A stretch of 64,000 bases of DNA. Origin: Lutraria lutraria (taxonomy: Eukaryota > Mollusca > Bivalvia > Venerida > Mactridae). The translations under genes and the position numbers were made by a program. Location: contig OZ026850.1 in the NCBI GenBank assembly GCA_964023205.1, positions 8,071,770-8,135,769 of the forward strand, in the 5' to 3' direction. Shown here in pieces: positions 36,353-37,363 of the stretch (positions are counted from its first letter, which is position 1; each line of letters begins with the position of its first letter). The notes beneath the pieces were generated by a model. That model saw only the letters and a list, made by a program, of their open reading frames with translations. It was not told the DNA's origin and ran no database searches.

Positions 36353-36461
36353 CATTGAACTCATTACGTGCCAACATGGTTGAAATCAACAAAGAACAAT
36401 GGTTGAAAGATGCTGAAGATTGTGAGAAAGCAGGAAGTATCCATACATGTCAAGCTATCAT
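36353..36461 (+). CDS. PRPF6: PRPF6 exon i, 3' end is unit 1 of a 41-bp array
   Basis: Encodes (A)LNSLRANMVEINKEQWLKD and AEDCEKAGSIHTCQAI, matching the vertebrate SLRANGVEINREQW and TCQAVM segments. The donor is AT|gtaagt at 36462. After splicing to 40537 the split codon reads ATA (Ile) where vertebrates have Met. The last 32 nt of this exon plus the first 9 nt of the intron are the founding unit of a 23-copy tandem array that fills the next 900 bases. The exon is followed by many copies of its own splice donor. Choosing the first donor keeps the frame; every later one would not. Confidence 0.94.
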
Positions 36462-37363
36462 GTAAGTATAGCAGCAAGTATCCATACATGTCAAGTTATC
36501 ATTAAGTATAGCAGCAAGTATCCATACATGTCAAGCTATCATGTAAGTATAGCAGCAAGTATCCATACATGTCAAGTTATCATGTAAGTATAGCAGCAAG
36601 TATCCATACATGTCAAGTTATCATGTAAGTTTAGCAGCAAGTATCCATACATGTCAAGTTATCATGTAAGTTTAGCAGCAAGTATCCATACATGTCAAGT
36701 TATCATGTAAGTTTAGCAGCAAGTATCCATACATGTCAAGTTATCATTAAGTATAGCAGCAAGTATCAATACATGTCAAGTTATCATGTAAGTATAGCAG
36801 CAAGTATCCATACATGTCAAGTTATCATGTAAGTATAGCAGCAAGTATCCATACATGTCAAGTTATCATGTAAGTTTAGCAGCAAGTATCCATACATGTC
36901 AAGTTATCATGTAAGTTTAGCAGCAAGTATCCATACATGTCAAGTTATCATGTAAGTATAGCAGCAAGTATCCATACATGTCAAGTTATCATGTAAGTAT
37001 AGCAGCAAGTATCCATACATGTCAAGTTATCATGTAAGTTTAGCAGCAAGTATCCATACATGTCAAGTTATCATGTAAGTTTAGCAGCAAGTATCCATAC
37101 ATGTCAAGTGATCATTAAGTATAGCAGCAAGTATCCATACATGTCAAGTTATCATGTAAGTATAGCAGCAAGTATCCATACATGTCAAGTTATCATTAAG
37201 TATAGCAGCAAGTATCCATACATGTCAAGTTATCATGTAAGTTTAGCAGCAAGTATCCATACATGTCAAGCGATCATGTAAGTATAGCAGCAAGTATCCA
37301 TACATGTCAAGTTATCATTAAGTATAGCAGCAAGTATCCATACATGTCAAGTTATCATGTAAG
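36430..37363 (+). repeat. 41-bp tandem array founded on exon i splice donor, 23 copies
   Basis: Unit gcagcaagtatccatacatg, tcaagttatcat, gtaagtata: that is, 32 nt of exon end plus 9 nt of intron. The first copy is the real exon-intron border. Eighteen of 23 copies keep atgtaag at the donor position (17 read gtaagt, the last gtaagc). Five have lost two bases (catTAAGT, unit 39 bp). A t/a change (gtttag versus gtatag) marks sub-groups. It ends abruptly at 37363, where a D-family repeat begins. Confidence 0.95.

What the first reader, a model, noticed from the sequence alone, without database searches (positions are those of the whole stretch)
36430..37363. A splice donor turned into a 23-copy minisatellite
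The repeat unit is the last 32 nt of PRPF6 exon i plus the first 9 nt of its intron. Copy 1 is the working exon-intron border, and 22 copies follow head to tail. Eighteen of the 23 units keep atgtaag at the donor position with the same exonic upstream sequence. The spliceosome therefore meets a row of nearly identical 5' splice sites and must use the first to keep the frame. The gene involved encodes a spliceosomal protein, so a feedback effect on its own splicing can be imagined.
Basis: partly seen in the sequence, partly recalled or inferred. Interest (0 to 1): 0.85.

Follow-up and report, generated by a model that had tools for sequence, protein, structure and literature searches.

The report
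Repeated splice donors in clam PRPF6
In a clam-like mollusc, the exact border between a coding segment and the following non-coding segment of a gene for an RNA-splicing protein has been copied in tandem at least 24 times, leaving 19 near-identical 'cut here' signals of which only the first can give a full-length protein; a similar but smaller case is known in a human gene.

Summary
In detail: 36429-37363 holds 23 head-to-tail copies of a 41-bp unit; copy 1 is the true end of a PRPF6 exon (36353-36461) and 18 of 23 keep its GT donor. I add four points. (1) The array once ran on: copy 24 and part of a 25th lie at 40394-40444, behind a 3,019-bp hAT-like insertion (37364-40382); 19 of 24 copies keep GT. 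(2) From the last donor (40427) to the acceptor (40536) is a 110-nt GT...AG stretch, probably the ancestral intron. (3) In that reconstruction two 12-mers, 11 of 12 identical, lie exactly 41 nt apart, suggesting birth by microhomology-guided duplication. (4) Every later donor adds an in-frame TAA (36463-36465), so only donor 1 gives PRPF6. Sixteen of 18 later GT donors score the same as donor 1, so position must decide. Most likely donor 1 dominates, with minor leakage and decay of those mRNAs; feedback is unsupported. The kind is known (human IFI6); here the unit is longer, carries exon sequence and is incompatible with translation. No RNA or second genome could be checked.

The parts
36353..36461 (+). 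PRPF6 exon i (109 nt), ends in phase 2 (..ATC AT|); spliced codon AT|A = Ile
   Evidence: PDB hPrp6 match; AG before, GT after, frame continuous; Ile also in Mercenaria P0001
36429..36469 (+). copy 1: the working exon-intron border (33 exonic + 8 intronic nt)
36429..37363 (+). 41-bp minisatellite, 23 copies before the insertion, 18 with a GT donor; copies 2, 8, 17, 19, 22 have lost the G
36463..36465 (+). TAA stop, in frame with exon i, included in any mRNA that uses a later donor
   Evidence: translation
37364..40382 (+). 3,019-bp hAT-like insertion that split the array; ends CGGGGCGCAAAAA / (reverse complement) CAGGGCGTATAAAAA
   Evidence: a related left end CAGGGCGCAAAAA at 23699. The end pair is imperfect and was not among the 6 inverted repeats
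37356..37363 (+). left target-site duplication CATGTAAG
40383..40390 (+). right target-site duplication GATGTAAG (7 of 8 identical)
40394..40434 (+). copy 24 of the unit, donor GT at 40427; preceded by TAT (40391-40393) that completes copy 23
40435..40444 (+). start of a 25th copy, AGCAGGGAGT; with the two A before it the 3' member of the 12-nt microhomology
40427..40536 (+). 110-nt stretch from last donor to acceptor: probable ancestral intron
40537..40606 (+). PRPF6 exon j (70 nt)

Best explanation
A short PRPF6 intron (probably 110 nt) and the exon before it happened to share a near-identical 12-mer 41 nt apart. A tandem duplication between the two 12-mers copied the exon-intron border, and later exchanges or slippage enlarged it to at least 24 copies; a hAT-like element then inserted near the far end and lengthened the intron to about 4 kb. 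(Anatomy shown; the order of events inferred.) In the pre-mRNA U1 snRNP meets 19 donors of nearly equal local strength. Donor 1 is expected to be used most because it alone closes a normal-sized exon (109 nt) with the upstream acceptor and is made first. Copies 3-5 (exons of about 190-270 nt) are expected to be used now and then. Each such mRNA carries the stop TAA directly after the last exon codon and should be degraded or give a truncated protein. (This splicing part is inference, by analogy with IFI6.) The array is most likely a tolerated by-product of genome turnover, not a regulator.
For: Polarity exon to array: of the 24 full copies copy 1 alone keeps the Gly codon (GGA) of the motif GSxxTCQA, the other 23 read GCA. 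Gly is present in 21 of 25 aligned rows and Ala-514 in 21 of 25, one of those rows being the window exon itself. Spliced i-to-j protein QAI-I-RSVI equals Mercenaria QAI-I-RSVI. Joining the flanks of the insertion restores the 41-nt phase and gives 24 units. The array phase resumes with an 8-nt overlap, the hAT target-duplication size (family property recalled). 110-nt GT..AG remainder. 12-mer 11 of 12 identical at exactly 41 nt; 21 of 2000 shuffles reach 11 of 12. Donor 1 has a good score among the gene's donors (8.59; the 12 others validly scored run from 1.54 to 11.91; a 13th row, exon j, was misplaced by one base). Precedent: in human IFI6 two downstream repeat units serve as donors, giving three mRNAs (passage of PMC4526556).
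Against: No RNA evidence for any donor in this species. Copies 3 and 4 are as strong as copy 1 by score (8.59) and U1 duplex energy (-7.5 kcal/mol), and predicted accessibility does not single out copy 1 (0.044 against 0.016-0.127 for the 17 later GT donors computed, copy 24 not computed), so the preference for donor 1 rests on position alone. With two competing donors the intron-proximal one can win (DOK7, passages of PMC5585400), and the last donor here closes a compact 110-nt intron. The 3' AAAGCAGGGAGT could itself be a broken repeat copy and not ancestral intron, in which case the shuffle figure is not independent evidence. The terminal inverted repeat of the insertion is imperfect (10 of the first 14 nt by eye) and the repeat finder did not list it. 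No outgroup DNA was available.
Confidence: 0.72

Rival explanations
1. Silent by-product: only donor 1 is ever used, the other 18 GT copies are ignored (distance from the acceptor, co-transcriptional commitment), and the array has no measurable effect.
For: The conserved protein needs donor 1; copy 2, the nearest competitor, has lost its GT, as have 5 of 24.
Against: Copies 3-7 keep the full donor; in IFI6 downstream copies are used. Loss of GT in copy 2 says little: 5 of the 22 downstream copies of the main array have lost it.
Confidence: 0.2
2. Regulatory poison array: array length and splicing-factor level set the fraction of PRPF6 transcripts that take later donors, meet TAA and decay, which tunes PRPF6 amount.
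For: Every later donor yields an immediate stop; splicing-factor genes often use nonsense-coupled splicing (recalled).
Against: No conservation data; no Rfam match at gathering scores in 36000-41000; too few independent mutations to show selection on the donors (9 variable unit positions); UBC tandem splice sites: no evidence of feedback reported. No search for enhancer or silencer motifs was run.
Confidence: 0.06
3. Assembly artefact: copy number inflated or array misplaced (a wrong copy number would not exclude the other readings).
For: Tandem arrays are error-prone (general knowledge); the assembly could not be searched.
Against: Copies carry distinct variants in no significant regular pattern; a further diverged copy lies beyond a 3-kb insertion in the same phase. 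The exact copy number may still be off.
Confidence: 0.05
4. The repeat came first (a minisatellite or mobile element) and was recruited as exon end.
For: Minisatellites are plentiful in the window.
Against: The exon end is conserved with human and other animals; of 24 full copies only copy 1 keeps the conserved Gly codon; the first 76 nt of the exon have no second copy in the window.
Confidence: 0.02

Closest known systems
Human IFI6 (6-16, G1P3) minisatellite, Turri, Cuin and Porter 1995 (title seen in reference lists; paper itself not held)
   Same: A minisatellite supplies multiple splice donor sites; two downstream repeat units are used, giving three mRNAs (passage in PMC4526556).
   Different: There the unit is 12 bp and in frame, so isoforms differ by a few residues (recalled); here 41 bp, mostly exon sequence, with a stop right after copy 1, and split by an insertion.
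Human UBC tandem array of dual-specific splice sites (PMC10809524, passages)
   Same: Tandem repeat with a splice site in each unit.
   Different: Those sites can act as donor or acceptor and delimit coding monomers; here donor only, with no AGGT in the array.
Internal tandem repeats at exon-intron borders of human duplicated genes (PMC2812944, passages)
   Same: Minisatellites (units of 30 bp on average) at exon-intron borders alter splicing.
   Different: Repeated 4 times on average, in paralogue families, forming novel introns; here one gene, 24 copies, and no sign of a new intron.
[quoted passage not shown] ATP2A1, fission-yeast 24-bp repeats, potato RdRp; PMC4974935 passages)
   Same: Short tandem duplication bearing splice signals.
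   Different: The cited model needs AGGT inside exon and makes a new intron; here an existing border was duplicated and no AGGT is present.

Membership tests
Splice-donor minisatellite (IFI6 type) | Tandem array begins at a genuine donor of a coding exon | tested here: met
Splice-donor minisatellite (IFI6 type) | Most units keep a donor consensus | tested here: met
   18 of 23, 19 of 24 with the displaced copy
Splice-donor minisatellite (IFI6 type) | Downstream units are used as donors in mRNA | not testable with these tools
   no RNA data
Splice-donor minisatellite (IFI6 type) | Copy number varies among individuals | not testable with these tools
   one sequence only; the genome search unanswered
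Intron gain by tandem duplication | AGGT in the unit giving a new GT and AG | tested here: not met
   0 AGGT in 36429-37363
Dual-specific splice sites (UBC) | Same element serves as donor and acceptor, AG|GT core (core recalled) | tested here: not met
   0 AGGT in 36429-37363
hAT-like DNA transposon (the insertion) | 8-bp target-site duplication | tested here: met
   CATGTAAG / GATGTAAG, 7 of 8; both flanks are repeat units, so the test is of phase overlap
hAT-like DNA transposon (the insertion) | Short terminal inverted repeats, CAGGG type (recalled) | tested here: inconclusive
   right end CAGGGCGTATAAAAA, left end CGGGGCGCAAAAA, 10 of the first 14 nt agree by eye; a related left end reads CAGGGCGCAAAAA at 23699; the repeat finder with minimum 14 did not list the pair
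hAT-like DNA transposon (the insertion) | hAT transposase | not tested
   only frames under 75 residues seen there in the listing, which was cut; no family search run on them

The most novel reading that the evidence does not exclude
The array is a length-tunable nonsense switch: more donors mean more unproductive PRPF6 splicing, so copy number (and splicing capacity) sets the dose of a tri-snRNP protein, and natural alleles differing in length would titrate the spliceosome.
Probability: 0.05. Interest if true: 0.85.

Novelty: new variant of a known kind. Interest (0 to 1): 0.45.

Why it matters
It is a natural experiment on how a donor is chosen. Nineteen donors share nearly the same 30-odd exonic and 6-8 intronic bases and differ mainly in position, so junction counts would measure the effect of position alone, in a core splicing gene where every wrong choice ends in a stop. 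The displaced last copy and the 110-nt remainder let the founding duplication be read almost base by base, which I believe is unusual for a minisatellite.

Tried and rejected
RNA structure favouring donor 1: not found (copy 24 not computed). Higher-order period of about 6 units suggested by the 245-bp fit: for copies 2-23, whole-unit identity at lags 1-12 is not above shuffles (smallest P 0.10). Selection for or against the donors: only 9 variable unit positions, and the lost G is shared by 5 copies and the T at position 40 by 8, so probably few events spread by copying; no test possible. Micro-exon use of copies in the main array: introns between copies would be about 13 nt (from the sequence). 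Zero-length recursive splicing: needs AGGT (recalled), absent. Capture of the array inside a Helitron-type element: considered and set aside because the 5' flank is the conserved exon; no search for such an element was run. Rfam: 0 matches at gathering scores in 36000-41000. Literature: ten answered searches; among the titles listed (lists capped, abstracts seen only at their start) I saw no molluscan donor minisatellite; two searches returned no paper. Passages looked at without use: PMC9923010, PMC12783039, PMC3039753. The library lacks most subscription papers.

Full report
What is there. The window carries a large part of a PRPF6 gene on the + strand. Thirteen exons between 15145 and 60989 splice to a stop-free frame of 522 residues (13 of 13 exon ends are followed by GT, 12 of 13 starts preceded by AG, the exception, 15145, being a BLAST start and not an exon border). 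The product aligns over its whole length to human PRPF6 216-735 and is 91% identical to PRPF6-like of the clam Mercenaria mercenaria, first of the 120 hits listed (query with a 35-residue piece of an earlier exon in front). The source is therefore probably a bivalve; the species was not determined.

The array. Exon i is 36353-36461. Its last 33 nt and the first 8 nt of the intron form a 41-bp unit repeated head to tail from 36429 to 37363: 23 copies, the last cut to 38 nt (TRF 22.9 copies, 96% matches). Eighteen of 23 keep GT at the donor position; copies 2, 8, 17, 19 and 22 share loss of the G. In the 24 copies counted below, 9 of 41 positions vary and copies differ from the consensus by 0-3 changes.

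The missing end. The unit also occurs at 40394-40433 (95% identical), about 100 nt before the next exon. Copy 23 stops at 37363 after GTAAG, and after 40383-40390 (GATGTAAG) the sequence goes on with TAT and a full copy 24 (40394-40434) and AGCAGGGAGT of a 25th. The 3,019 bp between begin CGGGGCGCAAAAA and end, on the other strand, CAGGGCGTATAAAAA; a related left end CAGGGCGCAAAAA stands at 23699. An 8-bp target duplication (7 of 8) and CAGGG-like ends fit a hAT-like element (family traits recalled). Against this, the two ends agree at only 10 of the first 14 nt by eye, the repeat finder did not list them, and a transposase was not looked for. Joining the flanks restores the 41-nt phase: 24 full units, 19 of them with GT. 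The array thus existed before the insertion, whatever the element is.

Ancestral intron and birth. From the last donor (40427) to the acceptor (40536) are exactly 110 nt, GTAAGTAAAGCAGGGAGT...TTATGTTTCAG. Put directly behind exon i this would be an ordinary intron. In that arrangement exon AAAGCAGGAAGT and intron AAAGCAGGGAGT (11 of 12) are exactly one unit, 41 nt, apart; 21 of 2000 shuffles of the two 60-nt stretches contain so good a 12-mer match. I infer a tandem duplication guided by this microhomology. The caveat is that the 3' 12-mer might be a broken copy and not old intron; an outgroup would decide.

Direction. The exon is the source. At the Gly codon of the motif GSxxTCQA, copy 1 has GGA; the other 23 of 24 full copies have GCA. 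Gly is found in 21 of 25 rows of an alignment of 24 animal PRPF6 proteins plus the window exon, Ala of TCQA in 21 of 25 (both counts include the window row). At the Ala codon copies 1 and 3 read GCT and copy 21 GCG; copy 17 reads GTG and the other 20 GTT. The first 76 nt of exon i have no second copy in the window.

Consequence for splicing. The spliced codon at the border is AT|A, Ile, as in Mercenaria, and none of the 24 aligned proteins has an insert there. If any later donor is used, the codon becomes ATG and is followed at once by TAA at 36463-36465. So only donor 1 gives PRPF6, whatever the frame of the extension. Locally the donors are near equals: 52 of 3926 GT sites of the window score at least as high as donor 1 (8.59), and 17 of these, donor 1 included, are array copies with the same nine bases; copies 23 and 24 score 7.84 and 7.55. 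U1 duplex energies are -7.5 (9 copies, donor 1 included), -5.6 (8 copies with gtaagttt), -4.5 (copy 23, beside the insertion) and -7.0 (copy 24) (weights and U1 sequence recalled, so ranks matter more than values). Predicted single-strandedness does not favour copy 1 (0.044; the 17 later GT donors up to copy 23 0.016-0.127). Position is what is left: donor 1 closes a 109-nt exon, copy 3 one of 190 nt, copy 23 one of about 1 kb; the upstream intron is 13.4 kb and the downstream one now 4.1 kb, where exon definition is expected (general knowledge).

What is known of such arrays. [quoted passage not shown] 1995, seen in reference lists; the paper is not held). A citing paper states that two downstream repeat units serve as donors, giving three mRNAs, with a 130-residue form predominant (passage); that this form comes from the first donor is recalled. 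So downstream units can be used near the start of such an array. Against a simple rule, in the human gene DOK7 the intron-proximal of two donors 11 nt apart is preferred, with SRSF1 favouring it (passages). By analogy I expect mainly donor 1, with leakage to copies 3-5; no data here test it.

Judgement. Observation confirmed and extended. The mechanism of origin is well supported, the splicing behaviour plausible but untested, and a feedback role unsupported. The kind of feature is known; the long exon-bearing unit, the built-in stop, the 24 copies, the split by an insertion and the legible birth make this a notable variant.

Noticed in passing
10418-11951: Second intronic minisatellite, 57-bp unit, 27 copies, 97% matches; because 57 is a multiple of 3 it leaves a 533-residue open frame on the - strand (10391-11989) that is probably meaningless.
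   Followed up: no
25376-26485: A piece of a DDE_Tnp_1_7 (piggyBac-type, recalled) transposase (25376-25663, E 2e-13) followed by a 12-copy 49-bp minisatellite (25898-26485, 98% matches); two neighbouring frames overlapping the array had no Pfam match.
   Followed up: partly
38809-39824: Inside the hAT-like insertion a perfect 16-nt inverted repeat pair (AATTGACCAGTCGCCA), possibly a second element nested in a 160-bp-type tandem repeat.
   Followed up: partly
5049-8024, 12761-14778, 29028-29627, 30407-31437, 33660-34571, 52517-52935: A tandem repeat family of about 155-170 bp recurs through the introns of this gene.
   Followed up: no
23699-23944, 35251-35455 and 48302-48533: Other fragments related to the hAT-like insertion; the first shows the left terminus CAGGGCGCAAAAA.
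   Followed up: partly
40360-40440: A pyrimidine-rich stretch ends about 20 nt before a possible acceptor (TATAG|CAG) in front of copy 24, whose donor is intact; the insertion might have created a cryptic exon of about 30 nt. Seen by eye, not tested.
   Followed up: no
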